From contig NZ_CP107947.1 in NCBI RefSeq assembly GCF_036059255.1, positions 4,898,001-4,962,000 on the forward strand: a DNA stretch of 64,000 nucleotides, given 5' to 3'. The DNA is from Micromonospora sp. NBC_00389. GTDB lineage: Bacteria; Actinomycetota; Actinomycetes; Mycobacteriales; Micromonosporaceae. The position numbers and the translations under genes are program-made. The notes beneath the pieces were generated by a model that did not search any database, was not told the origin of the DNA, and worked only from the letters and a program-made list of their open reading frames with translations. Positions within the stretch are counted from its first letter, which is position 1, and the number at the start of each line of letters is the position of its first letter. Positions 45,434-64,000 of the stretch are shown in pieces.

Positions 45434-45940
45434 TCAGAGCGCCACTGGCCATTGCACGTAGCCTCGTCCGACGTATGCCTCCGCCGAGATCAACCAGTCC
45501 ATGTCCCGATCTGCCACCCGGGCCATGCCACGTTCGGCCCCTTGCGATCCACCCAAGTAGTGTTCTTGGCCGTTAGTGGGCCAGAACAGCGACAGTCTGC
45601 TGTTGCAGGTCGAGCAGACTAGACCACGAATACACCGACCGCAGGACCCCCTACCCGCGCAGCATTCGTGATCATGGTCGATCGCGAGGTAAGGGCTGTC
45701 AACACGGGACCGCTCGCTAGGGCACAGGGCGCAGTGGAGGTTTTGGCGGCGTAGCAGCCAGTCGTACTGCTCCTCTGTGATGCCGTGACGCTGGCGTAGG
45801 TACCTGTCCCTCACGGTACGAGCCGGTGTCGGAAAGACCTGCTTGGCCTGGCGTCGTAGGGGCGGCACTGACCAGGCTAGCCATTCGTCGTCGCTTGCCT
45901 CATGAAGGAGACGCTGGTACTGCTCGACGAGGTCGTCCAT
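45434..45940 (-). CDS. Recombination endonuclease VII-like (HNH-type) protein
   Basis: 168 residues. The C-terminal half shows the endonuclease VII metal/nuclease pattern: RQNLHCALCPSERS (CxxC), LAIDHDHECCAGRGSCGRC (catalytic DHDH with Cys ligands), IRGLVCSTCNSRLSLF (second CxxC and Asn). The start ATG is at 45940. Phage endonuclease VII resolves branched DNA; chromosomal relatives occur in mobile elements and defence genes. The neighbourhood (IS remnant, low-GC genes) suggests a phage or element origin. Confidence 0.8.
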   Translation of the reverse strand: MDDLVEQYQRLLHEASDDEWLAWSVPPLRRQAKQVFPTPARTVRDRYLRQRHGITEEQYDWLLRRQNLHCALCPSERSRVDSPYLAIDHDHECCAGRGSCGRCIRGLVCSTCNSRLSLFWPTNGQEHYLGGSQGAERGMARVADRDMDWLISAEAYVGRGYVQWPVAL

Positions 45941-47992: not shown

Positions 47993-48382
47993 TCATCGCT
48001 GGTCGAGTCGGGCGAGCAGTGCGTTCACCTCGGTGTGCAGCCGGCGCAGCTCCGCGGCCGTCGGCGCCAGCTCGTAGCAGTGGTGGTGCGCGGCGGTCGA
48101 GAGCGTGGCCCACGCGTACGCCACCCGCCGGGCGACCTCCGCGCCCGGCCCGAGCCGGCCGCGCAGCATCAGCTGCTTGGCTCGGCCCTGCCGGCAGGCC
48201 GCGACGCTCGGCTTGACCCGCCGCCAGTAGGCGTCGATGCCGCCTTCCAGGGCGAGCCGGATCAGGCAGGCGCAGGCCCGAGGCCACCAGCCGCCGGGAA
48301 CGGCGACGACCCCCAGCAGGCCGGAGCCGCGCAGCAACTGGTCGGCCGCCGCCAGGCAGCGCTGCGGCGTCGGCGCGGTCAC
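47993..48382 (-). CDS. Small helical protein coupled to the zinc-hook ATPase (HEPN-like?)
   Basis: 129 residues from GTG 48382, overlapping the ATPase stop (GTGA), so translation is coupled. All-helical: PTPQRCLAAADQLLRGSGLL, PRACACLIRLALEGGIDAYW, then ARRVAYAWATLSTAAHHHCY and TAAELRRLHTEVNALLARLD. The Arg-rich helix followed about eight residues later by HHH recalls HEPN RNase-type cores, although the exact RnxxxH motif is not present. It could be the toxic or signalling partner of the ATPase. The HEPN assignment is tentative. Confidence 0.65.
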   Translation of the reverse strand: MTAPTPQRCLAAADQLLRGSGLLGVVAVPGGWWPRACACLIRLALEGGIDAYWRRVKPSVAACRQGRAKQLMLRGRLGPGAEVARRVAYAWATLSTAAHHHCYELAPTAAELRRLHTEVNALLARLDQR

Positions 48383-50832
48383 CGCAGCGCCCCCGCCAGG
48401 AAGCGGGCGTCCGCGACCAGGCCCGGCAGGTCCGCCAGGTACGCGCCGTGCACGCCCTCCCGGCACGCCTCGTACGCGTCCACCGCCCGTCGTCCGTGCC
48501 GACGGCCCAGCTGGTTGCGCACGTCACCGCCCCGATCGGCGTCGTCGAACAGCGCCAACGCGACGATGGTGGCCAGCCGACGCGACGCGGCCTCGATGGC
48601 CTTCTCGATGTCGTCGTGCGGGACACCCCGGGCGACCCGTACCCGCCAGACCACCCGGTGGCAGGCCGCCTCCAGCCCCGCGCGGCACAGCTCCGCCACC
48701 ACCGGACCGCGCACCTCGGCGGGGATGTCCTCGTTGCGCGACAGCGCGTACGCGTCGTCCAGGTAGCGGCTCACCGGATCCGAGCCGGGCCGCAGCGTCA
48801 CGACCGACTTCTCCGCCCGGTGCACCTCGACGATGCGGGCGTCGCCGAGGCCGAGCCGGGTGACCGCGTCGTGCAGGCGGGTGTCGTGGGTGAAGACCAC
48901 CACCTGCCGCTGCTCGGCCAGCTCGGCGAGCACCCGCGCGAGACCGTCCACCTTCGACGGGTCCATGCTCTGCACCGGGTCGTCGACCACGATGAACCGG
49001 AACGGGCTCTCCGGGGCGCAGCTGCGCGGCAGGAAGGTGGCCAGCCCGAGCGCCTGCATCTCACCCTGGCTCATCACACCCAGCGCGGTGCCGTTGTCGG
49101 CGCCGTCGACGCTGACCGGGAAGACCACCCGCCGCCGGGTGTTCGCGCCTTCGAGCGTCATCGCTCCCAGCTCGACGTTGCTCTCCTGCCGCAGCTGAGC
49201 CCAGATCCGCTGGGAGTGCCCGGCGAACGGCGCGACCCGCTCGTTGCGGATCTCCGTACCGGCGTCCTTCAGCCAGCCGCGCGCGGCCTTCAACCGGGCC
49301 AGGGTCGCCTCCCGCGCCGGCAACCCGCCGGCCGCGGCCACCCACTCGCGCACCTCGGCCGCGGCCGCCCGCCAGCCGGTGTCGCGCTGCCGCAGAAACC
49401 CCTCCGCGTACGAACGGGCCGCGTCCGCCGCGGCCACCACCGCCGGGTACCGCGCGGCCAGGTGGTCGGCCAGGTCGGCCGGCTTCCCGGGTACGCGCCG
49501 CAGCGCCGCCACGGCATCGCGCAGCGCCCCGACCGGCGGCTCCGACCCGGGATCGTCGGGCACCGCGAGGTCATCGATCAGGTGGTGCGTCTGTCGCAGC
49601 AGAGTCGTGAGCCGGGTCGCCGCCGTCTGGGCGGCGACACTGCGCTGCCGGAGGTCGGTCAGGGCCTCCGCGGCGGCGGCACGCCATCCACCATCGAGTG
49701 TGCCGGTAGCGCAGACCGGGCACGACCCCTCGCCCTGGTCCTCGTGATGTTCCAGGGCGAGGCGGAGCAGCTCGGCGCTGCGCAGCGCGGCCCGGGACCG
49801 GCCGCCGTCGTACCGCAGGGCCTCGACCGCCGCCTCCCGCAGCTGACCCGCCAGCCGGACCACCTCGTCGAGCGGCGGCGGAGCGAGAGCGGCGAGTTCC
49901 CGGCAAAGCAGCACCTCCCCGTCGGTGGTCGGCTCGTCGGGCTCGTCGAGGATCGCCGTCACCGCCGTGAGGTCGACCGCGCCCCGTCCGTGCAGAAGCG
50001 CGACCGTCCGCCGGGCCCGGTCGTCGGTGATCCCGGACAGCGCGTCGGCCAGGGCGGCGCGCTGTGCGCGTACCTCCTTGATGGTGGTGTCGTGCGGCCG
50101 GGCGGCGCGCAGCAGACGCTGGTCGGCGTCGGTGAGCGCGTCCAGGCCGAGGATCGCGAAGAGCGCGTCGAAGAGCTGGCTCTGCGTGCCGGCGGCGAGC
50201 TTGCCCAGCTCGGCGGCGGTGAGGAACGGCCGGTACAGCTCCAGCGGGCGGGCCAGACCCAACTCGGTGAGGCCGGTGTGCCGGCCCCGGGCGCTGGTGA
50301 CGGTCACCTCGGCGTCGGCCAGCTCGGCTCCGACCGGCCAGGCGCGGTGCACCCGGGTCGGCGTGGCCACGCCGTCGACCCGCAGCTCCACGCCGACCCA
50401 GCACGGATCCGGGTTGTGCAGGTTTCGCCACCCCGTACGCCAGACGCTCGTCTTGTCGGCCCACCGGGCGCTGTCGCCGGTGAGGGCGAGTTCGACGGCC
50501 TCGGCGAAGCTGGACTTGCCGGAGCCGTTGCGGCCGACGACCAGGGTGAGGCCCGGACCGGGGTCGATCTGGACGGTCCGTTCCGGGCCGATGCCGCGGA
50601 AGCCCGCGACGGTCACCGACTTCAGCCAGATCCGGTCCGCTGGACCGTCGCCGGTGGGGGAGCGGGGGTCGAGCCGGGTGGGAGTGCCGGCGAGGGCGGC
50701 GGTCAGGTCTTCCTCGCTGGTCAGCGCGGCGAGGACGAGCTCGGCGGTCTCGGTCGGTACGTCGTCAGCGGCGGCGAGTCGGTCGAAGATCAGCTCGATC
50801 AGCGGTGCGGTCGGCTGGGGAGGCTGGGTCAT
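48379..50832 (-). CDS. SMC/Rad50-like ATPase with zinc-hook CxxC
   Basis: 817 residues; ATG 50832 follows TGGAG seven bases upstream. Walker A GRNGSGKSS at 100-108 after a typical LKSVTVAGFRGIG strand, a short coiled-coil-like middle with CPVC at 371-374 (zinc-hook position), signature VMSQGEMQAL at 586-595, Walker B FIVVDDPVQSMDP at 613-625 and switch THD at 648-650. A C-terminal helical domain (about 690-817) is not part of the ABC core. The coiled coils are much shorter than in SMC/Rad50, as in phage-defence ATPases of the RloC/PtuA/Lamassu type. Coupled to the 129-residue gene. Confidence 0.88.
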   Translation of the reverse strand: MTQPPQPTAPLIELIFDRLAAADDVPTETAELVLAALTSEEDLTAALAGTPTRLDPRSPTGDGPADRIWLKSVTVAGFRGIGPERTVQIDPGPGLTLVVGRNGSGKSSFAEAVELALTGDSARWADKTSVWRTGWRNLHNPDPCWVGVELRVDGVATPTRVHRAWPVGAELADAEVTVTSARGRHTGLTELGLARPLELYRPFLTAAELGKLAAGTQSQLFDALFAILGLDALTDADQRLLRAARPHDTTIKEVRAQRAALADALSGITDDRARRTVALLHGRGAVDLTAVTAILDEPDEPTTDGEVLLCRELAALAPPPLDEVVRLAGQLREAAVEALRYDGGRSRAALRSAELLRLALEHHEDQGEGSCPVCATGTLDGGWRAAAAEALTDLRQRSVAAQTAATRLTTLLRQTHHLIDDLAVPDDPGSEPPVGALRDAVAALRRVPGKPADLADHLAARYPAVVAAADAARSYAEGFLRQRDTGWRAAAAEVREWVAAAGGLPAREATLARLKAARGWLKDAGTEIRNERVAPFAGHSQRIWAQLRQESNVELGAMTLEGANTRRRVVFPVSVDGADNGTALGVMSQGEMQALGLATFLPRSCAPESPFRFIVVDDPVQSMDPSKVDGLARVLAELAEQRQVVVFTHDTRLHDAVTRLGLGDARIVEVHRAEKSVVTLRPGSDPVSRYLDDAYALSRNEDIPAEVRGPVVAELCRAGLEAACHRVVWRVRVARGVPHDDIEKAIEAASRRLATIVALALFDDADRGGDVRNQLGRRHGRRAVDAYEACREGVHGAYLADLPGLVADARFLAGALR

Positions 50833-50924: not shown

Positions 50925-51743
50925 TCAGACCGTGGCGTTCGCGTGCCAGTCGCGCAGGAACGCGTCGACCAGGGCGTACGCCCGGGGGCGCAGGTCGAAG
51001 GACTCCTCCCGCCGGCGGCGGGCCATGTGGCACAGTCCGTCGGCAGCCTCGTTGAGCGGGTGGCCGCTGTGACCCTTGACGTGCGCGAAGGTCAGGCCGG
51101 GGCGGTGGGCCACCTGCTCGGCGAGCCGGACCAGGGTCGGCTGGTCGGACCAGCGGCGCTCCCGCAGGCTGTAGCCGGCGGGCATCGCATCGGTCTCGCC
51201 GGCCTGCCAGCGGTGCAGGTATCGCAGAGCGGTCAGGCTGTCCAGCAGCACGGTCATGCCGGTCGGCACCTCGTCATACCCGGTCAGCAGGTAGTCGACC
51301 GCGCGCAGTTCGTCGACGAGCACCCGGGAGGCGCCGGTCGGGTCGAGCCTGCCGGTACCCCGACCAAGCAGGCCGTAATGGCCGTCGCTGACCACGTACC
51401 CGATGCCACCGGCGCGGCCCTTCCAGCTGGCGTCGGTCGCAGCCACCAGCGGCGCGGACGCCCCCGCCCAGCGGATCACCCGGCCGCGCCCGCGCTGCGG
51501 GTCCGGGCGCGGCGGAGCGTGCTCGGTGTGCTCGCCAGCGAGCCGCTCGGCGGTATCGAGCAGTTCGCTGGCGGAGGTCAGCTCGTCGTAGTGGGCGGCA
51601 GTGAGGGCGAGGCGGACGGCGTCACCGATCCGCTGGCAGTCGTCGCAGCGGGTGGAGCGGGCGTAGGGACGGAGGGTGACTGCCCGGCCGTGCAATGGTG
51701 GGGGGAGTTCGGCCAGGGCACGGAGGAATTCATCGGGCCGCAC
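50925..51743 (-). CDS. RNase H-family protein with N-terminal extension
   Basis: 272 residues from ATG 51743. RNase H fold with catalytic acids in VAATDASWKGRAGGIGYV (Asp), DELRAVDYLL (Glu), VLLDSLTALRYL (Asp) and HVKGHSGHPLNEAADGL (His, Asp). A 100-residue N-terminal extension carries a CDDC pair (STRCDDCQRIGDA). It would cut RNA in RNA/DNA hybrids. It sits 92 bases upstream of the ATPase gene on the same strand, so it may belong to the same module. Confidence 0.85.
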   Translation of the reverse strand: MRPDEFLRALAELPPPLHGRAVTLRPYARSTRCDDCQRIGDAVRLALTAAHYDELTSASELLDTAERLAGEHTEHAPPRPDPQRGRGRVIRWAGASAPLVAATDASWKGRAGGIGYVVSDGHYGLLGRGTGRLDPTGASRVLVDELRAVDYLLTGYDEVPTGMTVLLDSLTALRYLHRWQAGETDAMPAGYSLRERRWSDQPTLVRLAEQVAHRPGLTFAHVKGHSGHPLNEAADGLCHMARRRREESFDLRPRAYALVDAFLRDWHANATV

Positions 51744-53206: not shown

Positions 53207-55129
53207 ATGTGCGAGACTTTCGACGTGCAGGAGAACCCGACCATCACGGCAGCGGAGACCGCCCGGCTCGCCGGCGTCGGTCGCGCTGCGGTCAGCAACT
53301 GGCGCAAAAGGCACCCCGACTTCCCCGCCCCGGTGGGCGGGACGACGGCGAGCCCCGAGTTCGACCTGATCCAGGTCGAGCAATGGCTACGCACCCAGGG
53401 CAAGCTCCCCGAGCTCGCCACCGCCGACCGGCTCTGGCGACACCTCGCCGCGGCTAGCGACTCCCCAGCCGCCGGGCTCGCGGCCGTCGGTGCGCTGCTG
53501 CTGGCCCGTCAGCGCGGCTCCCGAAGCGGTCACCCCGACGCACAGCTCGCGCCGCTGCTGCCCGACGTCGACGCCCTCGCCGACGAACTGAGCCCGCAGG
53601 GCGCGTTCGACGAGCTGTGGCAGCGGTTCTCCGCACCCGGACCCGGCCGCCCATTCGCCACCCCCGACGACCTCGCCGACCTGATGATCGGGCTCGCCAG
53701 CGTCGGCGGCGGCTCAGTGCTCGACCCGGCCGCCGGCTCCGGTGCCATCCTGCGAGCCGCCGTCCGCGCCGGCGGCACCTCGGTGTACGGGCAGGAACTC
53801 GACGAGGACCTGGCCCGGCTCGCCGGCCTGTGGCTGGCCCTGCACGACGTACCCGGAGAGGTCTGCCCCGGTGACTCACTGCGCGCCGACGCCTTCGCCG
53901 GCCGCGCCGTCGACGCCGTCGTCTGCCACCCACCGTTCGGCGCCACCAACTGGGGCGACGAGGAACTCGGGCACGACCCACGCTGGATCGTCGGCACCAC
54001 ACCCCGTACCGAACCGGAGCTGGCCTGGGCGCAGCACGCCCTGGCCCACCTGCGGGTCGGCGGACACGCCGTACTGCTGATGCCGCCCACGGTGGCCAGC
54101 CGGCGCGCCGGCAAGCGGATCCGCAGCGAGCTGCTGCGCCGAGGCCACCTGCGCGCCGTCATCGCGCTCCCGCCGGGTGTGGCGGCGCCGCACGGCGTAC
54201 CGCTGCACCTGTGGGTGCTGCGGCGGGCTGCGGCCGACGCGCCGCCACCGGCGCGGGCGCTTCTGATCGACGCCGCCGGAGGCGACCTGACCGACACCGT
54301 GCCACGCGTGCTGGCCGCGTGGCGGGCGTTCGCCGCTGCTGCGGACGCCGACGTCGAGGAAGTCGGCTTCGCCCGCGCGGTCCCGGTCATCGAACTTCTC
54401 GATGAGGAGGTCGACCTCACCCCCGCGCGCCGGCAACCGGCCGTCGCGGGCGAGGCTTCGGGAGAGCATCTGGTACGCACTAGAGAGCGGCTGGCCGCCA
54501 TCGTCGGCGAGCTGCCGGCGCTGCTGCCGCAGGTCACACCCGCGCCCGACGGGTCGGACGGCCTCTTCCTCACGGTGGGGGAGCTGGCGAAGACCGGGGC
54601 GCTCCAACTGATCGGCCCGGTCCGCGCCGGCACGTCCACACCCACACCCGACGGGCCGCCGGTGCTCACCGTGCCGGACGTGCTCGCCGGGGTGGAGGCG
54701 TCCGGGCGGGTCGACGACCGGTTCGGGCAGGAGATCCTTCTCGCCGTGGGGGACGTGGTGGTGCCGATGATCGCGCGGCAGCTCATCCCGCGGGTGGTCA
54801 CCGCCGACGGCGCGCTGTTGGGGCGCAACCTCTACCTGCTGCGACCCAACCCGGCGGCACTGGATCCGTGGTTCCTGGCTGGGCAGCTGCGGACGTCGGC
54901 CAACGAGAAGCAGGCGTCGAGTCTGTCGGGGACGATGCGGTTCGACATTCGACGGGCGCAGGTGCGGCGGCTATCGCTCGACGAGCAACGGGCGCACGGG
55001 GACGCGTTCCGGCGCCTCGACGCCTTCGAGTCAGCGATCCGGCAGGCCGCCTCGCTGGGAGCGGAGCTGGCTCAACTCACCGCCGACGGCCTGGCGCGTG
55101 GGTCGATCCGGCCGGACGACCCGCGGTGA
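53207..55129 (+). CDS. Stand-alone N6-adenine DNA methylase-like protein
   Basis: 640 residues from ATG 53207 (GTG 53225 is possible). Residues about 12-62 are an HTH of the AlpA/MerR type (TAAETARLAGVGRAAVSNWR). The methylase domain follows: SAM motif DPAAGSG at 173-179 and motif IV, which reads HPPF at 241-244 where N/D/S-PP-Y/F is expected. The C-terminal 200 residues resemble a target-recognition/HsdS-like half (LLAVGDVVVPMIARQLIPRV, SGTMRFDIRRAQVRRL). Similar single-gene proteins are common in actinomycetes without a nuclease partner. The His in motif IV may impair methyl transfer. Confidence 0.82.
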   Translation: MCETFDVQENPTITAAETARLAGVGRAAVSNWRKRHPDFPAPVGGTTASPEFDLIQVEQWLRTQGKLPELATADRLWRHLAAASDSPAAGLAAVGALLLARQRGSRSGHPDAQLAPLLPDVDALADELSPQGAFDELWQRFSAPGPGRPFATPDDLADLMIGLASVGGGSVLDPAAGSGAILRAAVRAGGTSVYGQELDEDLARLAGLWLALHDVPGEVCPGDSLRADAFAGRAVDAVVCHPPFGATNWGDEELGHDPRWIVGTTPRTEPELAWAQHALAHLRVGGHAVLLMPPTVASRRAGKRIRSELLRRGHLRAVIALPPGVAAPHGVPLHLWVLRRAAADAPPPARALLIDAAGGDLTDTVPRVLAAWRAFAAAADADVEEVGFARAVPVIELLDEEVDLTPARRQPAVAGEASGEHLVRTRERLAAIVGELPALLPQVTPAPDGSDGLFLTVGELAKTGALQLIGPVRAGTSTPTPDGPPVLTVPDVLAGVEASGRVDDRFGQEILLAVGDVVVPMIARQLIPRVVTADGALLGRNLYLLRPNPAALDPWFLAGQLRTSANEKQASSLSGTMRFDIRRAQVRRLSLDEQRAHGDAFRRLDAFESAIRQAASLGAELAQLTADGLARGSIRPDDPR

Positions 55130-55131
55130 GG

Positions 55132-55533
55132 TCAGACCTCGACGATGGGCCAGTCGTCGCCGAGCACCTTCCGCACCTGATCGGCCCGAGACGTGATGAG
55201 GCCGGCAGCGTTGCTGATCGCGACGAAGGCTGCGTGGCCGGCTCCGAGGCGGCCGGCCTGCCGAGCCATGCCCCCGATCACGGGACAGTCGTCGGCCCGG
55301 TCGACGTGCAGGGCCGGTGTGATGACGCGTACGGCTGGGTTGCGACGCAGCATCGACAGGTACTCGTGCTCGGTGTGGTCGAGCAGGCTGTACGCCTCGA
55401 GCAGGCAGACCAGCGGCACGGCAACCGTCGCATCGGCGTCGGCCGCCTCCACCATCGCCTCACCGACGGCGTCGACACCCTGGGCGTAGGCCATCAGGGC
55501 GCCGGTGTCGAGCACGTAGACCGGTGTGCTCAC
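55132..55533 (-). CDS. PIN-domain toxin (VapC-like)
   Basis: 133 residues from GTG 55533, overlapping the antitoxin stop (GTGA). PIN features: first acid in VYVLDTGALMAYAQG, second in CLLEAYSLLDH, and GHAAFVAISNAAGLITSRAD, where the third acid position is less clear (His-Ala in place of Asp). VapC proteins cleave tRNA or rRNA loops. The downstream methylase gene ends only two bases from it, tail to tail. Confidence 0.8.
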   Translation of the reverse strand: MSTPVYVLDTGALMAYAQGVDAVGEAMVEAADADATVAVPLVCLLEAYSLLDHTEHEYLSMLRRNPAVRVITPALHVDRADDCPVIGGMARQAGRLGAGHAAFVAISNAAGLITSRADQVRKVLGDDWPIVEV

Positions 55534-55841
55534 GCCGCACTCGGCCGGTCGAAGTCGGCGCGGACCTCGTCGACCGGGCGCTCCAGCAGCTCCGCCACAC
55601 GGGCTATCGCCGCTTCGCGCATCTCCGCGGTTACCTGGCGGGCCGCCAGCCGCTGCATCGCGCCCTCCGGGTCGTACGGGAACTCGCCGTGCCCGGCTGC
55701 CCGCAGAGCAGTCCGCATGTCGTCGGATATCCGACGGCGGCGCAGCGCTTCGGTGACATACGCGGAAACCTGGCGGGCCGGGAGCGCATCCAGCTGCTCG
55801 GCCACGTCATCAGGGACCGAGATCGTCACACGCCGACTCAT
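55530..55841 (-). CDS. Ribbon-helix-helix antitoxin (VapB/CopG-like)
   Basis: 103 residues from ATG 55841. N-terminal RHH: RRVTISVPDDVAEQLDAL then VSAYVTEALRRR; the C-terminal part (AARQVTAEMREAAIARVAEL) should wrap the PIN toxin. Antitoxin-first order with a four-base overlap is standard for such pairs; the RHH dimer would repress their promoter in the 140 bases before hsdM. Confidence 0.8.
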   Translation of the reverse strand: MSRRVTISVPDDVAEQLDALPARQVSAYVTEALRRRRISDDMRTALRAAGHGEFPYDPEGAMQRLAARQVTAEMREAAIARVAELLERPVDEVRADFDRPSAA

Positions 55842-55981: not shown

Positions 55982-57943
55982 GTGAGTACCAAGCACCAAG
56001 AGCTCGCGAACTTCATCTGGTCGGTCGCCGACCTGCTCCGCGGCGACTACAAGCAGTCCGAGTACGGCCGGGTGGTCCTTCCCCTGACCGTGCTGCGTCG
56101 GCTCGACTGCGTGTTGGAGCCAACGAAGGATGCGGTGCTCGCCCGGCACAAACAGCTCAAGGACATGGGCGTGCAGAACATGGACCCGGTGCTGCGCAAG
56201 ACCGCCGGGCTGTCGTTCTACAACACCAGCGAGATGTCCTTCCGCAAGCTGCTCGGCGACCAGGACCACGTAGCGCTGAACCTGCGTGCCTACATCGGTG
56301 GCTTCTCCCCGGGTGCGGTCGACGTGCTGGAGAAGTACGGCTTCGACACCCAGATCAGCCGCCTCGCCGAGGCCGGACTGCTTTACCAGGTGATCGCCAA
56401 GTTCGCCGACATCGACCTGCACCCGGACGTGGTCTCCAACCACCAGATGGGCTACGTCTTCGAGGAGCTGATCCGTCGCTTCTCCGAAATCAGCAACGAG
56501 ACCGCCGGTGAGCACTTCACCCCGCGCGAGGTCATCAAGCTGATGGTCAACCTCCTGCTCGCCCCCGACGAGGACGACCTGGTCACCCCGGGCATCGTCC
56601 GCAAGGTCTACGACCCGGCCTGCGGCACCGGCGGCATGCTCAGCGAGGCCCAGGACCACATCCAGGAGCACAACCCACACGCCACCGTCGAGGTGTACGG
56701 GCAGGAACTCAACGGCGAGACATACGCGATCTGCCGCTCCGACATGATGCTCAAGGGTGGCGACCCCACGAAGATCGCCTACGGCAACTCCTTCAGCCAG
56801 GACGGCCACGAGAGCGAGCGCTTCGACTACATGCTCGCCAACCCGCCGTTCGGGGTGGAGTGGAAGAAGGTCGAGAACTACATCAAGGCCGAGCACGCCC
56901 GCGGCCACGCCGGCCGGTTCGGCGCCGGTCTGCCGCGGATCAACGACGGCTCGCTGCTCTTCCTCCAGCACATGATCTCAAAGATGAAGCGCCCCGAGGA
57001 CGGTGGCAGCCGGCTGGCGATCGTCTTCAACGGCTCGCCGCTCTTCACCGGAGCCGCCGGGTCGGGGGAGTCGGAGATCCGCCGCTGGATCCTAGAAAAC
57101 GACCTCCTAGAGGGCATCGTCGCCCTGCCTGACCAGCTCTTCTACAACACCGGCATCTCCACGTACTTCTGGATCCTTACCAACCGCAAGGACCCAGCCC
57201 GCCGCCGCAAGGTCGTGCTGCTCGACGGCCGCGACTACTGGACCAAGATGCGCAAGAGCCTCGGCGACAAGCGCAAGATGCTCACCGACGAGCACATCGC
57301 CGAGCTGACCCGGGCGTACGTCGACGCGTTGTCCATCGCGGACGATCCGGAGCACCCGCAGCACGCCAAGGTGAAGGTCTTCAAGACCACTGATTTTGGT
57401 TACCAGCGGATCACCGTCGAGCGGCCGCTGCGATTGCGCTTCGAGGTCACCGAGGAGACCGTGGCGCTTCTCGCAGAGGCACGGGCGGTGCTCAAATACG
57501 CCGAGCGGGATTCGCTGCTGGCCGGGGCGAAGTCGCTGATCGGTACGAGGTCTGCGACGCGGGCCGAGTTCGCGATGAAGCTGAACGGACTGGGGAAGCT
57601 GCCGGCTGCGGTGGAGAAGGCGGTGTGGGAGGCGTTCTCGGTCAGCGACCCGGAGGGGGAGGTGCAGACCGACCGCAAGGGCAAGCCGCTGCCGGACGCC
57701 GATCTGCGCGACAACGAGAATGTGCCGCTGAACGATGACATCCACGACTACCTCAAGCGCGACGTGCTGCCGAACGTCCCCGACGCCTGGATCGACGAGA
57801 CCAAGACCAAGATCGGCTATGAGATCCCCTTCACTCGCCACTTCTACGCCTACCAGTCGCCGCGTCCTCTGGCCGAGATCGACGCCGAGATCAAGGCGCT
57901 GGAAGCGGAGATTCAGGCCCTGCTCGGCGAGGTGACCTCTTGA
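55982..57943 (+). CDS. hsdM: Type I restriction-modification system, modification subunit
   Basis: 653 residues from GTG 55982, with AAAGGAA upstream. HsdM N-terminal helical domain (LANFIWSVADLLRGDYKQSE), then the methylase domain with motif I DPACGTGGML (about 211-220) and motif IV NPPFGVEWKK (about 289-298), both intact, unlike the methylase at 53207. A C-terminal coiled region ends the protein (EIDAEIKALEAEIQALLGEV). It methylates adenine as HsdM2S and forms part of the restriction complex. Its stop overlaps the TTG of hsdS. Confidence 0.95.
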   Translation: MSTKHQELANFIWSVADLLRGDYKQSEYGRVVLPLTVLRRLDCVLEPTKDAVLARHKQLKDMGVQNMDPVLRKTAGLSFYNTSEMSFRKLLGDQDHVALNLRAYIGGFSPGAVDVLEKYGFDTQISRLAEAGLLYQVIAKFADIDLHPDVVSNHQMGYVFEELIRRFSEISNETAGEHFTPREVIKLMVNLLLAPDEDDLVTPGIVRKVYDPACGTGGMLSEAQDHIQEHNPHATVEVYGQELNGETYAICRSDMMLKGGDPTKIAYGNSFSQDGHESERFDYMLANPPFGVEWKKVENYIKAEHARGHAGRFGAGLPRINDGSLLFLQHMISKMKRPEDGGSRLAIVFNGSPLFTGAAGSGESEIRRWILENDLLEGIVALPDQLFYNTGISTYFWILTNRKDPARRRKVVLLDGRDYWTKMRKSLGDKRKMLTDEHIAELTRAYVDALSIADDPEHPQHAKVKVFKTTDFGYQRITVERPLRLRFEVTEETVALLAEARAVLKYAERDSLLAGAKSLIGTRSATRAEFAMKLNGLGKLPAAVEKAVWEAFSVSDPEGEVQTDRKGKPLPDADLRDNENVPLNDDIHDYLKRDVLPNVPDAWIDETKTKIGYEIPFTRHFYAYQSPRPLAEIDAEIKALEAEIQALLGEVTS

Positions 57944-59166
57944 CGGTTCCTGTCAGCTGGCCTCGCCAGCGCCTCGGGCGCGTCGCGCGTACCATCGGAG
58001 GATCTGGCTTCCCTCCTGAGTATCAGGGCTCATCTGAGGGTGACCTTCCCTTCGCTAAGGTGTCCGACCTTCGCTTTCCCGGAAATGAATCTGGCGTTTC
58101 GACAGCTGCGAACTACGTATCGCGTGCCCAAGCTCGTCAGCTTGCTGCGCGCATCATTCCTCCGGGATCCGTGGTTTTTCCGAAGGTGGGTGCGGCACTC
58201 CTGGGCAATGCGAGAGCCCAGACCCTTCATGAGTGCCTTATCGACAACAACATGATGGCTGTGGTGCCACACGCCGGCGATCCTCGCTATTGGCTTTATC
58301 TACTTTCCACCATCGATCTCGGTGAGCTCTCTCTTGGTGGACCTCTCCCTTACGTGAGCGAAGCCCAAGTTCGTGATATTCGAGTCTCAGTCCCGCCGCT
58401 CGACGAACAGCGGCGGATTGCCGACTTCCTCGACGCTGCCACAGCTCGACTGGATACACTCGCCGCTTTGCATAAAAGAACCCGCCACGCGATTGCTGGA
58501 CGAGCCCGAGCCTATGTTGATGACGTGGCCGCGCGGGTGACATCAACTGTTCGCTTCAAGTATGTCGTGCGGTACCGTGAGGGCCCCGGGATCATGGCTG
58601 CCGACTTCCGCGAATCTGGCGTTCCTCTCGTCCGAGTAGCGGGCCTCAAGGGCCGTTCGGCCTCACTGGCTGGCTGCAACTACCTTGACGAATCTAAGGT
58701 GTTGACAAGCTGGCGGAAGTTCCGTATCCGTATGGGCGATTACCTGCTGAGCGCCAGCGCGTCGACAGGTCAGGTATCCGTCGTTGACGATCCCGACCTT
58801 GTCGGAGCCGTCCCTTATACGGGGATTATCATACTGAGGCCAGCAAGGCCCGACGTGGACATGGGATTTGTCGAGGCAATGCTTGCTTCCAGCATGTTCC
58901 TATCGCAGATCGATCAACTGAAGGCTGGTATGGCAATACAGCACTTCGGCCCCACGCATCTATCGTCAGTTGACCTACCCTGGCTCGACAGAGCCGAGCG
59001 GACGAAAATTGGGCACAACTACCAACGCCTCCTTAACGAAGCCAGCTCCCTGTGCGGTCGACTTGACCGCGCATTGAACCTGCTCGAGGAGCGGCGGCAG
59101 GCGCTGATTATGGCGGCCGTTACCGGTCAGATTGAGGTGGCCACGGCGCGGGGAGTGGACGTATGA
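57940..59166 (+). CDS. hsdS: Type I restriction-modification system, specificity subunit
   Basis: 408 residues from TTG 57940 in a TTGA overlap with hsdM. Two target-recognition regions with conserved linkers: the central VPPLDEQRRIADFLDAATAR-type helix and the terminal RQALIMAAVTGQIEVATARG. The first and second variable regions (about 58000-58380 and 58560-58960) have a visibly lower GC content than hsdM and hsdR, the usual sign of exchange of recognition domains. DNA target cannot be deduced. Confidence 0.92.
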   Translation: MTVPVSWPRQRLGRVARTIGGSGFPPEYQGSSEGDLPFAKVSDLRFPGNESGVSTAANYVSRAQARQLAARIIPPGSVVFPKVGAALLGNARAQTLHECLIDNNMMAVVPHAGDPRYWLYLLSTIDLGELSLGGPLPYVSEAQVRDIRVSVPPLDEQRRIADFLDAATARLDTLAALHKRTRHAIAGRARAYVDDVAARVTSTVRFKYVVRYREGPGIMAADFRESGVPLVRVAGLKGRSASLAGCNYLDESKVLTSWRKFRIRMGDYLLSASASTGQVSVVDDPDLVGAVPYTGIIILRPARPDVDMGFVEAMLASSMFLSQIDQLKAGMAIQHFGPTHLSSVDLPWLDRAERTKIGHNYQRLLNEASSLCGRLDRALNLLEERRQALIMAAVTGQIEVATARGVDV

Positions 59167-62100
59167 GTCCAGCTCATCAGGAGCAGTCGTTTGAGGCGGG
59201 CATCGAGGCGGAGTTGCTCGGCTCAGGGTGGTTGGCCAGCGCTGCCACCAACTACGACCGGCAGTTTGGGCTAGATACCGCTGAGCTGTTCGCGTTCGTC
59301 GGGGCGACTCAGCCTGACGAGTGGGCGAAGCTGCTGGCCTACCACGGGAACAACCCAAATGAGGCGCAGCGGCATTTCGCTCAGTACCTTGCCAAGCAGA
59401 TCGACGAGCGCGGCCCCCTCGACGTCCTCCGCCGAGGCCTCAAGGACAAGGGCGTCCTCATCCGCCTCGCCTACTTCAAGCCCGCTCATGCCATCACCGA
59501 CGATGCGCTTAAGCTCTACCGCGCCAACCGCCTCACCGTCACCCGCCAGCTCGCCTACTCGACGAGCAACAGCAACACCCTCGACCTGGTCCTCTTCGTC
59601 AACGGCATCCCTCTCGCCACGGCCGAGCTGAAGAACCCGCTCACCGGGCAGACCGTCGAGGACGCTAAGAAGCAATACCGGGAGACCCGCGACCCGAAGG
59701 AATTGCTCTTCGCACGGCGTACCCTCGTGCACTTCGCCGTGGATCCCGACCTGGTATTCGTCACGACGAAGCTGGCCAGCGACAAGACCCCGTTTCTGCC
59801 CTTCAACACCGGCTCCGACGGGCCGGGCGTGTCCGGCGGCGCTGGCAACCCGCCCGCCGGCGAGAGCGGCTACCGCAGCTCCTACCTGTGGCAGCAGATC
59901 TGGCACCCGGACACCTGGATGGACCTGCTCCGGCGGTTCCTGCACACCGACAAGGAATCGAAGGCGCTGATCTTCCCGCGCTACCACCAGTGGCACGCGG
60001 TCACCCAGCTCACCGACCACGCCGCCCGCAATGGCTCTGGCCACAACTACATGGTGATGCACTCGGCCGGGTCGGGCAAGTCGAACACCATCGCCTGGCT
60101 GGCACACCGGCTCTCCAGCCTGCACACCGCACCGGCGCTCGACGAGGAGGCCCGGGCCAAGGGGCTGCGCCCCAACGAGCCGGTCTTCGACAAGGTCATC
60201 ATCATCACCGACCGGGTGGTGCTGGATCGGCAGTTGCAGGACACCGTCTTCCAGTTCGAGCACGTGCCGGGCGTGGTGCAGCGGATTGACAAGGATTCGG
60301 CCCAGCTTGCCGCCGCCCTCCAGGGCGAGACGGCCAAGGTCGTCATCACGACCATGCAGAAGTTTCCCTACATTCTCAATCAGGTGCAGGGGCTGCGCGG
60401 TAAGCGGTTTGCCGTCATCGTTGACGAGGCGCACTCGTCGCAGTCCGGTGACTCGGCCGCCGCGCTGAAGAAGGTGCTGCTCAAGCTCGGTAGCGACGAC
60501 GTGGACGAGTCGGGCGACCTGCTCACCGCGTCAGCGCTGGCCCGCGGCCGGCACGAGACGCTGTCGTACTTCGCGTTCACCGCCACGCCGAAGCCGAAGA
60601 CCCTGGAGCTGTTCGGCACGCCGCACCCGGTCACCGGCAACCCGCAGCCGTTCCACACGTACTCGATGCGGCAGGCCATCGACGAGGGCTTCATTCTCGA
60701 TGTGCTGCGCAATTACCTGACCTACAAGTCTTACTGGAAGCTGGCCAACGCCAACCCCGACGATCCCGAGGTCGACCCGAAGAAGGCCGGCGCCCAGCTC
60801 GCCCGCTTCGCCAGCCTGCATCCCACCATGCAGGCGCAGAAGGCCGAAATCATCGTCGAGCACTTCCGCAAGCACACCGCGCCGCGCCTGGGCAATCGCG
60901 CCAAGGCCATGGTGGTCACCGGATCCCGCGAGGCCGCGGTCCGCCTGCACACCGCCATCAAGAAGTACGTCGAGATGCAGGGCTACGTCGGGTGCGACTC
61001 CCTGGTCGCCTTCTCCGGCGACCTGGAGGTCGACGGCGTCGAGCACACCGAAGCGCGGAGCAACGGCTTCAGCGAGGGCGAGTTGCCCGAGCGGTTCGCC
61101 TACACCGCCGCCGACGACAAGCATGCTGGCACGCCCAAGGCCAAGCAGCCGACCGAATATCGGATCCTGGTCGTCGCCGAGAAGTACCAGACCGGCTTCG
61201 ACCAGCCGCTGCTAACCACGATGTACGTCGACAAGCTTCTCAAGAACGTCGCCGCCGTGCAGACCCTGTCCCGGCTCAACCGCACCCACCCGCTCAAGGC
61301 CCAGGGTGACGTCTTCGTCCTCGACTTCGTCAACGAGGCCGGCGACATCGCCGAGCATTTCAAGCCGTACTTCGAGACCGCCGCCACCACCCCCACCGAC
61401 CCCAACGTTCTCTACACCGCGCAGAACGCGGTGACGGGCTACCCGGTGCTGGTGGACTCGGAGATGCAGGCGTACGCCGACGCCCTGCTCGCCGCCGAGC
61501 AGAAGGCAACCAGCGACACCGCGCTTCAGCGGGCGCACGCCGCTCTCTACCGCTTCACGGAGCCGGCCGTCCAGCGCTTCAACGCCCTGGCCGCCGACGA
61601 CCCGGAGGCAGCGGACACCTTCCGGTCCGCGCTGCGCGACTACACCCGGATGTACGCGTTCCTCAGCCAGGTCGTGCCGTACCACGACGAGGATCTGGAA
61701 CGGCTCTACCTGTACGGACGGGCGTTGCTCAACCGGTTGCCCCGGCGGCAGGACCCGTCCGTCGACATCGGTGAGGTGCAGTTGACCCACCTGCGGGTCA
61801 GCAAGACCGGCGAGCACGACGCGTCGCTGTCGCCCGAGGGCGAGCAGATGCTGCCCGGCTTCCTCGGCGGGGGAGCGGGTCAGCAGCACGACCTGGAGAA
61901 GGTCGTGTTGTCGGAGCTGATTGACGTCTTCAACGACAGGTTCGGCATCGGGCTGGGCGAGGCCGACAAGGTCTGGGTCGAGCAGCAGATCGTCGCGCTG
62001 GCCGAGGACGGCACCCTCGAAGCCGCCGCGATGGTCAACGACGAGAGCAACTTCGGCGTGGTCTGCGACAAGCGGATCGAGGACGTGATCCTGTCCCGGC

Positions 62101-62222
62101 ACGACGACAACGGCAAGCTGATGCAGCGCTACCTCGACGACGATGCGTTGCGCTCGCAGCTCAACCAGTTCGCGCGTCGCCAGGCGTACCAAATGATCCG
62201 CCGCCGTAAGGGCATCGCCTAG
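59163..62222 (+). CDS. hsdR: Type I restriction endonuclease, motor/nuclease subunit
   Basis: 1019 residues from ATG 59163, overlapping the hsdS stop. PD-(D/E)xK nuclease: Asp141 and Glu155-x-Lys157 (TLDLVLF..., TAELKNP). SF2 translocase: Walker A HSAGSGKSN near 299-307, DEAH box VDEAHSSQSG, motif III FTATPKP and motif VI VQTLSRLNRTHP. All key residues are present, so the system looks functional. Confidence 0.95.
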   Translation: MSPAHQEQSFEAGIEAELLGSGWLASAATNYDRQFGLDTAELFAFVGATQPDEWAKLLAYHGNNPNEAQRHFAQYLAKQIDERGPLDVLRRGLKDKGVLIRLAYFKPAHAITDDALKLYRANRLTVTRQLAYSTSNSNTLDLVLFVNGIPLATAELKNPLTGQTVEDAKKQYRETRDPKELLFARRTLVHFAVDPDLVFVTTKLASDKTPFLPFNTGSDGPGVSGGAGNPPAGESGYRSSYLWQQIWHPDTWMDLLRRFLHTDKESKALIFPRYHQWHAVTQLTDHAARNGSGHNYMVMHSAGSGKSNTIAWLAHRLSSLHTAPALDEEARAKGLRPNEPVFDKVIIITDRVVLDRQLQDTVFQFEHVPGVVQRIDKDSAQLAAALQGETAKVVITTMQKFPYILNQVQGLRGKRFAVIVDEAHSSQSGDSAAALKKVLLKLGSDDVDESGDLLTASALARGRHETLSYFAFTATPKPKTLELFGTPHPVTGNPQPFHTYSMRQAIDEGFILDVLRNYLTYKSYWKLANANPDDPEVDPKKAGAQLARFASLHPTMQAQKAEIIVEHFRKHTAPRLGNRAKAMVVTGSREAAVRLHTAIKKYVEMQGYVGCDSLVAFSGDLEVDGVEHTEARSNGFSEGELPERFAYTAADDKHAGTPKAKQPTEYRILVVAEKYQTGFDQPLLTTMYVDKLLKNVAAVQTLSRLNRTHPLKAQGDVFVLDFVNEAGDIAEHFKPYFETAATTPTDPNVLYTAQNAVTGYPVLVDSEMQAYADALLAAEQKATSDTALQRAHAALYRFTEPAVQRFNALAADDPEAADTFRSALRDYTRMYAFLSQVVPYHDEDLERLYLYGRALLNRLPRRQDPSVDIGEVQLTHLRVSKTGEHDASLSPEGEQMLPGFLGGGAGQQHDLEKVVLSELIDVFNDRFGIGLGEADKVWVEQQIVALAEDGTLEAAAMVNDESNFGVVCDKRIEDVILSRHDDNGKLMQRYLDDDALRSQLNQFARRQAYQMIRRRKGIA

Positions 62223-63223: not shown

Positions 63224-64000
63224 ATGCGGGCGCAGGAGCGTGTCGCCGACCGGTACGAGCTGACTTACCCGGTCGGCCGCGGGGGCATGGGGGAGGTGTG
63301 GGCGGGCTTCGACGAGAAGCTGGACCGGCCAGTCGCCATCAAGTTCCTCCGCCAGCTCGCCATCCCCGAGGGCGAGCGTGAGAACGCCGTCGAACGCTTC
63401 ATGCGAGAGGCTCGGGTCACCGCCCGCCTCGACCATCCTGGCGTGCCGAGCGTGCACGATGTCGGCTACCACGGCGACGACATCTACATCGTCATGCAAC
63501 TCGTGCCTGGCCTCGTACTGGCCGACCTGGTCGCCGAGCGGGGCTGGCTCTCCGTACCGTGGGCCGCCGCAATCGGCGCCCAGATCTGCTCGGTGCTAGC
63601 CGCCGCACACGCCGCCTCGCTTGTACACCGCGACCTCAAGCCACAAAACCTCATGGTCACCCCGTCCGGGTCGGTCAAGGTCCTCGACTTCGGGGTGGCC
63701 GCGCTGCTCGGCCCGGACGTACCCCGCCTCACCGCCACCAGCCACACCCTTGGCACCCCCACCTACATGGCTCCGGAACAGGCCCTCAACAGCGCGGTCG
63801 GCCCTCGGGCCGACCTCTACGCCCTGGGGTGCGTCCTGTTCGAGCTTTTGACCGGGACCCCGCCGTACCGCGCGGACACCGCGCTCGGCCTGCTGCACCG
63901 GCACATGAACGACCCGATTCCGTCGGTAACCGAACATCGGGCTGGGGTGCCAGACGGTTTGGTGGAACTCGTCGCGCGGTTGCTCGCGAAGGACCCGCAG
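63224..64000 (+). CDS. Serine/threonine protein kinase (partial, N-terminal 259 residues)
   Basis: ATG 63224 with GGGGGAGG a few bases upstream. Hanks-type kinase: glycine loop VGRGGMGEVWAG, ATP Lys in VAIKFL, catalytic HRDLKPQN, DFG in VLDFGVA, and APE as MAPEQ. The gene runs off the window. PknB-type kinases in actinomycetes often carry C-terminal membrane and sensor domains, which cannot be seen here. Confidence 0.93.
   Translation, partial: MRAQERVADRYELTYPVGRGGMGEVWAGFDEKLDRPVAIKFLRQLAIPEGERENAVERFMREARVTARLDHPGVPSVHDVGYHGDDIYIVMQLVPGLVLADLVAERGWLSVPWAAAIGAQICSVLAAAHAASLVHRDLKPQNLMVTPSGSVKVLDFGVAALLGPDVPRLTATSHTLGTPTYMAPEQALNSAVGPRADLYALGCVLFELLTGTPPYRADTALGLLHRHMNDPIPSVTEHRAGVPDGLVELVARLLAKDPQ

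What the first reader, a model, noticed from the sequence alone, without database searches (positions are those of the whole stretch)
47993..50832. Candidate undescribed two-gene system: zinc-hook ATPase plus coupled small helical protein
An 817-residue SMC/Rad50-type ATPase with a CPVC hook and very short coils is coupled by GTGA to a 129-residue all-helical protein with an Arg-rich helix and HHH, HEPN-like. ATPase sensors with a small RNase/nuclease partner are a common plan of phage-defence systems (PtuAB, RloC-like, Lamassu). The pair lies 2.4 kb from a methylase and 5 kb from a TA pair and Type I system. I do not know this exact pair as a described system.
Basis: partly seen in the sequence, partly recalled or inferred. 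Interest (0 to 1): 0.7.

Follow-up and report, generated by a model that had tools for sequence, protein, structure and literature searches.

The report
Zinc-hook ATPase with paired HEPN domains
Two coupled genes in a Micromonospora restriction island encode a Rad50-like ATPase and a small partner, each apparently carrying an atypical HEPN domain (a fold often used by RNA-cutting toxins), which makes them a likely undescribed relative of known anti-phage suicide systems.

Summary
The pair is real. An 817-residue zinc-hook ABC ATPase overlaps by four bases a 129-residue all-helical gene. The small protein's predicted structure matches HEPN domains. New here: the ATPase's C-terminus (685-817) also looks HEPN-like. 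The two go together: 57 of 57 fetched ATPases with that domain have the small gene downstream; 0 of 14 without it do. Both domains share R-x3-E on helix 2 and a near-invariant His at the end of helix 3. The canonical Rx4-6H motif is in 18 of 37 small proteins and 13 of 37 ATPase tails, but not in the window's. The pair is patchy (14 of 37 genus genomes), occurs on Streptomyces plasmids, and lies within 10 kb of an N6-methylase in 19 of 39 loci (0.36 expected). Other loci have GmrSD, McrBC or Wadjet-like neighbours; some have none recognised. Best reading: an RloC/PrrC-like backup defence module whose ATPase senses DNA or failed restriction and activates a HEPN-HEPN effector. The small protein's fold and co-inheritance are well supported; defence is inferred from context; RNase activity is unproven. 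No description was found in the held literature, but a key ABC-ATPase survey was not held. New variant of a known kind.

The parts
48379..50832 (-). Zinc-hook ABC (Rad50/RloC-like) ATPase, 817 aa
   Evidence: family profile matches Rad50 structures, best 3qf7 E=2.6e-12
50512..50535 (-). Walker A GRNGSGKS (residues 100-107)
   Evidence: in 237 of 241 proteins of the set
49711..49722 (-). CPVC zinc-hook motif (residues 371-374)
   Evidence: CPVC in 237 of 241, CPIC/CPPC in 2, no CPxC in 2
49060..49074 (-). ABC signature MSQGE (residues 587-591)
   Evidence: 238 of 241
48958..48996 (-). Walker B FIVVDDPVQSMDP (residues 613-625), Asp in place of the usual catalytic Glu
   Evidence: DDPVQSMD in 230 of 241
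48382..48780 (-). C-terminal HEPN-like domain of the ATPase (residues 685-817), with R717, E721 and H795
   Evidence: AlphaFold2 pLDDT 96.8; VIA-align rows 1-18 HEPN-type or nucleotidyltransferase-associated chains; Foldseek not significant; residue conservation
47993..48382 (-). Small HEPN-like partner, 129 aa, with R42, E46, H99, H101, Y103
48074..48088 (-). H99-H100-H101-C-Y103, the stretch at the position of the canonical HEPN motif
53207..55129 (+). Divergent HTH + N6-methylase-like protein, 640 aa; motif IV reads HPPF, so possibly not catalytic (HTH judged by eye)
   Evidence: PF02384; motif; related divergent genes in other loci
55982..57943 (+). Type I restriction HsdM (motif IV NPPF)
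57940..59166 (+). Type I restriction HsdS
59163..62222 (+). Type I restriction HsdR
50925..51743 (-). RNase H-like protein upstream of the ATPase; optional cargo (its cluster has members in 13 loci, window included; L021 and L047 are one locus)
   Evidence: PF00075 E=6.7e-7

Best explanation
A two-gene defence module of the PrrC/RloC kind. A zinc-hook ABC ATPase dimer acts as sensor of foreign or damaged DNA, or of restriction that is being bypassed or inhibited. Its C-terminal HEPN-like domain binds the separately encoded HEPN-like subunit, as HEPN domains often pair (recalled). ATP-driven rearrangement exposes a composite HEPN-HEPN site that cuts (or blocks) RNA, probably host tRNA or mRNA, and stops phage growth. 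It serves as a backup to the restriction systems it often sits beside. Supported by computation: the small protein's HEPN fold, the probable HEPN fold of the ATPase tail, their co-occurrence, the conserved residues, the accessory distribution and the restriction linkage. Inferred: physical pairing, the sensor role, RNA cleavage, the abortive outcome.
Confidence: 0.55

Rival explanations
1. The HEPN-like domains are non-catalytic. The ATPase-HEPN pair is an accessory DNA-handling or RNA-binding complex that helps or regulates the neighbouring restriction enzymes rather than a killing effector.
For: Rx4-6H absent from both window proteins and from 19 of 37 small proteins and 24 of 37 ATPase tails. 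[quoted passage not shown] The pair lies beside several kinds of restriction system.
Against: Two His of the small protein (37 and 36 of 37), one His of the ATPase (37 of 37) and an R-x3-E in each are near-invariant, more than the fold alone should need. The same paper describes a family that lost the Arg but may use other basic residues. Some pairs have no restriction neighbour that I recognised.
Confidence: 0.25
2. A chromosomal DNA-repair (SbcC/Rad50-like) pair without an anti-phage role.
For: ATPase profile matches Rad50; some copies sit among genes not tied to defence; the HEPN-less homologue has the same flanks in 12 of 12 fetched loci of family f31; UniRef names some homologues 'Nuclease SbcCD subunit C'.
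Against: Patchy (14 of 37 in the genus), plasmid-borne copies, restriction linkage, a diverged second pair in the same genome (46% identity).
Confidence: 0.12
3. A toxin-antitoxin pair: the HEPN protein is the toxin, and the ATPase with its HEPN-like tail is the antitoxin.
For: H-x-Y at the end of helix 3 of the small protein, as in HepT (the HepT motif is recalled); coupled genes; a HEPN gene paired with a ParA-like ATPase gene has been proposed as TA (PMC3710099, passage).
Against: An 817-aa zinc-hook ATPase is far larger than usual antitoxins, and its conserved ATPase motifs suggest an active sensor (general knowledge).
Confidence: 0.08

Closest known systems
RloC (zinc-hook ABC ATPase with C-terminal HEPN anticodon nuclease)
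   Same: Rad50-like head with zinc hook and a C-terminal HEPN-type domain; likely activated through the ATPase
   Different: A second, separately encoded HEPN-like subunit; Rx4-6H absent in the window proteins; [quoted passage not shown]
PrrC with its type I restriction system (PrrI)
   Same: ABC-HEPN effector beside a type I R-M system as second line of defence (PMC3710099 passage)
   Different: PrrC is one polypeptide kept inactive by the R-M system; here two HEPN-like domains, a zinc hook and an extra HTH-methylase-like protein
Lamassu (LmuB with LmuA/LmuC)
   Same: Rad50-like ATPase, often with a zinc hook, and a small partner; PADLOC LmuB matches
   Different: The matches shown are short head-domain stretches; none of 10 proteins scanned with PADLOC matched an Lmu effector; Walker B ends DD, not the E-to-Q change described in PMC10586767 (passages)
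MADS (mad1-mad8)
   Same: Best PADLOC match of the ATPase is mad3 (74 bits); the HTH-methylase-like protein matches mad2 and weakly mad1, and a kinase neighbour in L048 matches mad6
   Different: The mad3 match is local; the methylase-like protein and the kinase match MTase_I and PD-T4-6 models better
HepT/MntA (HEPN-MNT) toxin-antitoxin HEPN
   Same: Fold; H-x-Y at the end of helix 3 (HepT motif recalled)
   Different: Partner is a zinc-hook ABC ATPase, not a nucleotidyltransferase

Membership tests
HEPN superfamily (small protein) | Four-helix HEPN fold | tested here: met
HEPN superfamily (small protein) | Rx4-6H at the end of helix 3 | tested here: not met
   Absent from the window protein (T96); present, ending at H99 or H101, in 18 of 37 non-redundant relatives. 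PMC3710099 treats the motif as the most conserved feature, not a universal one
HEPN superfamily (ATPase residues 685-817) | HEPN fold | tested here: inconclusive
RloC | ABC head with zinc hook | tested here: met
   Motifs; Rad50 match
RloC | C-terminal HEPN nuclease with Rx4-6H on the same chain | tested here: not met
   HEPN-like tail present, but no Rx4-6H ending at H795 in the window; 13 of 37 relatives have one
RloC | Anticodon nuclease activity on tRNA | not testable with these tools
   Needs biochemistry
Lamassu | Adjacent LmuA effector (and usually LmuC) with LmuB | tested here: inconclusive
   10 proteins, most of them neighbours from related loci, scanned with PADLOC: no Lmu match in the lists shown (at most 25 rows each); many neighbours were not scanned
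Lamassu | Walker B Glu-to-Gln change in LmuB | tested here: not met
   D617 and D618 in 37 of 37; described as general, not absolute, for LmuB
MADS | Full mad1-mad8 set | tested here: inconclusive
   Only partial, second-best matches for some components; the search did not show the primary paper
HEPN_SAV_6107 (PF18726) | Match above the Pfam cut-off | tested here: not met
   Genome-wide search finds one member elsewhere in the genome, not this gene; no PF18726 match among 32 family members at E<=1
Type I restriction-modification (neighbour) | HsdM, HsdS and HsdR together | tested here: met
   Window 55982-62222

The most novel reading that the evidence does not exclude
A widespread actinobacterial 'guard' module with a split, two-HEPN effector: a zinc-hook ATPase whose HEPN-like tail and a separate HEPN subunit build one composite RNase site, in which an Arg on helix 2 (R-x3-E) can stand in for the canonical one, controlled by a divergently encoded HTH protein derived from a methylase that has mostly lost its catalytic Asn and now reports on the state of the neighbouring restriction system.
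Probability: 0.25. Interest if true: 0.8.

Novelty: new variant of a known kind. Interest (0 to 1): 0.62.

Why it matters
If it works as proposed, it links the PrrC/RloC suicide strategy to a two-subunit HEPN effector found across many actinobacteria, antibiotic producers among them, and explains proteins now labelled only 'AAA family ATPase', 'Nuclease SbcCD subunit C' or 'hypothetical protein'. It would show HEPN sites that work, in many members, without the canonical Arg, and make testable whether degenerate methylases next to restriction systems serve as sensors. The HEPN-less homologue in another family, sitting in an SMC operon, offers a natural comparison of the ATPase with and without its presumed effector.

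Tried and rejected
Sequence libraries for the small protein: Pfam, PADLOC, NCBIfam and PHROGs gave nothing; Pfam on 32 family members gave only weak scattered matches (best E 0.0089, one member). The UniRef label 'SAV-6107-like HEPN' on two homologues could not be confirmed with PF18726, so I do not use it as evidence.

HMM-HMM comparison of the ATPase tail with the small family: not significant, although its 37 aligned columns put the two R-x3-E stretches in register.

Distances between loci for ATPase head, ATPase tail and small protein correlate (Spearman 0.72 head-tail, 0.70 head-small, 0.66 tail-small, 38 sequences). No control gene was run, so I give this no weight.

Filing as Lamassu, MADS or RloC: rejected or left open for the reasons in the membership test.

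Phage and virus origin: no match in the phage collection at E<=1e-20; 8 loci in viral contigs matched weakly (best segments 23-45% identity) and were not followed. A phylum sample (246 genomes, 12 with a match) was not opened for neighbourhoods.

Literature: eight searches showed no description of the pair in their listings; only held open-access papers are covered, and the ABC-ATPase classification of Krishnan et al. 2020 was not held, so it may list this family.

Full report
Observation. The two reading frames exist as described, on the minus strand of what is by its relatives a Micromonospora chromosome (nearest named records are Micromonospora; window at G000:C1:4898001-4962000). The ATPase (817 aa) has Walker A GRNGSGKS, a CPVC hook, signature MSQGE and Walker B FIVVDDP, and the small protein (129 aa) starts at the ATPase's stop codon. 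The motifs are nearly unchanged in a set of 241 proteins, the query and the best 120 of each of two searches (237 GRNGSGKS, 237 CPVC, 238 MSQGE, 230 DDPVQSMD); the set is biased to closer relatives.

Distribution. In 61 genomes (own plus 60 relatives) the ATPase has a clear match (E below 1e-20 and at least 40% identity) in 14 of 37 same-genus genomes, own included; G003 has a 29% relative and G020 only short pieces. Most weaker matches there are short head-domain stretches in other large ATPase-like frames. The small protein matches in 18 of the same 61 genomes at E<=1e-3; its matches below 1e-5 lie next to an ATPase or near a contig end. The own genome has a second pair at 2.65 Mb, 46% identical in the ATPase. 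In a class-wide sample 50 of 296 genomes match at E<=1e-30, 16 of them from family f31, mostly HEPN-less (below), and in a phylum sample 12 of 246. Three plasmid records carry the ATPase. On Streptomyces pM92 (the same record length as the contig of locus L111) and on a conjugative Streptomyces plasmid it stands with annotated Hsd genes, a large 'hypothetical protein' in the place of the HTH-methylase-like gene (not scanned), and a large AAA-type or helicase gene downstream; on the second the ATPase is annotated in two parts. The third, a 2.7-Mb Nocardia record, has only a resistance-gene prediction in that stretch.

They occur together. Among the ATPases of at least 600 aa in my fetched loci, 57 of 57 with the C-terminal domain have the small gene within about 1 kb downstream, and 0 of 14 without it do. 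The small-protein model was built partly from 29 of these loci's own region, but 28 of the 57 loci (L091-L118) were not used for it and all 28 have the gene. Six shorter ATPase pieces (L032, L034, L044, L045) were dropped; L021 and L047 are the same locus; 37 loci remain after removing near-duplicates. The 14 are twelve loci of one family (f31; 12 fetched of 16 f31 genomes with a match), one contig-edge copy (L028) whose frame ends right after the ATPase head, and one distant homologue (L046). Because the f31 loci are one lineage, this is strong as co-inheritance but counts few independent losses.

Conserved residues. [quoted passage not shown] In 37 non-redundant loci the small protein keeps R42 (37), E46 (36, one D), H99 (37), H101 (36) and Y103 (32, F in 3). 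The ATPase keeps R717 (36, one K), E721 (35, two D) and H795 (37). Both thus show R-x3-E on helix 2 and His at the end of helix 3. A true Rx4-6H ending at these His is present in 18 of 37 small proteins and 13 of 37 ATPase tails, and in neither window protein. So catalysis is plausible in part of the family, and elsewhere would need a substitute Arg, as that paper suggests for another family; it is not shown.

Context. In the window the pair stands opposite an HTH-methylase-like gene and a complete type I system, with an RNase H-like gene and other cargo between. N6_Mtase genes lie within 10 kb in 19 of 39 loci in 36 genomes (36 of the 51 then known to carry the tailed ATPase), against 0.36 expected from their number per genome. 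The Poisson-binomial P of 4e-30 treats loci as independent, which they are not. The hits fall in 6 of 9 families (f1 10 of 12, f7 1 of 1, f8 1 of 9, f31 1 of 1, f32 4 of 6, f33 2 of 4; none in f3, f34, f41); that in f8 (G261) is a weak match in a long frame. Other loci lie beside GmrSD (L041, L096), McrBC (L103), RloB with an AAA_21 protein (L094), DUF2397/SMC genes (L116) and a helicase of the PDC-S37/Hhe kind (L037). Several lie among genes I could not tie to defence by eye (L091, L092, L095, L107).

Mechanism. PrrC and RloC show the plan: an ABC head senses trouble with DNA or restriction and releases a C-terminal HEPN RNase (PMC3710099, passages). I propose the same here, with the HEPN site shared between ATPase tail and small subunit. 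Shown by computation: folds (small protein well, ATPase tail fairly), co-inheritance, conserved residues, accessory spread. Inferred: contact, sensing, RNA cutting, cell arrest. Rivals are a non-catalytic accessory (0.25), DNA repair (0.12) and toxin-antitoxin (0.08).

Novelty. No model in the four libraries matches the small protein, and eight literature searches listed no description. Of the papers I opened I read passages only (PMC3710099, PMC12839542, PMC10586767). The likeliest place for an earlier mention, Krishnan et al. 2020, was not held. I therefore call it a new variant of a known kind, not a new kind.

Noticed in passing
window 53207-55129 and homologues in the fetched loci: The HTH + N6-methylase-like protein opposite the pair lacks the Asn of methylase motif IV in 15 of 18 HTH-type copies of its cluster with a readable motif (HPPF 9 including the window, EPPF 5, APPY 1; NPPY/NPPF in 3), while 19 HsdM-type rows keep NPPF. 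Left out of the 18: L050 (no motif found), L026 (NPPY, no HTH detected) and the related cluster c22 (8 rows, no NPP motif). It may be a pseudo-methylase acting as regulator or sensor.
   Followed up: partly
L119-L130 (12 fetched loci of family f31): A homologue of the ATPase without the HEPN-like tail and without the small gene sits in a conserved operon DUF2397 - DUF2398 - SMC-like (SbcC_Walker_B) - ATPase, beside genes that look like rpmG-hadA-hadB (recalled names). DUF2398, SMC and ATPase clusters in 12 of 12, the DUF2397 cluster in 11 (not L122); Pfam run on L120 only.
   Followed up: partly
L028:2-1903: A Micromonospora inaquosa copy, at a contig start, ends right after the ATPase head and lacks both the HEPN-like tail and the small gene, as if one deletion removed both.
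   Followed up: no
L031, L033, L034, L035: A four-gene operon (about 264, 360, 488 and 435 aa; of the L033 proteins only the last, helicase-like one has a Pfam match) stands divergent to the pair in four loci, including the window genome's own second pair; possibly an undescribed system.
   Followed up: partly
window 55132-55805 (-): PIN-like toxin (133 aa) and a 91-aa partner, a VapBC-like pair by eye, between the HTH-methylase-like gene and HsdM.
   Followed up: no
window 45434-45940 (-): Endonuclease VII-like protein (PF02945, E 2.3e-12) on the other side of the pair.
   Followed up: no
window 63224-64000 (+): Protein kinase gene cut by the window end, after HsdR; members of its cluster recur in related islands (such as L048, L049, L052).
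   Followed up: partly
L029:4601-6361, L139, L140: DUF6119 proteins recur between the methylase-like gene and the ATPase, also on two Streptomyces plasmids.
   Followed up: no
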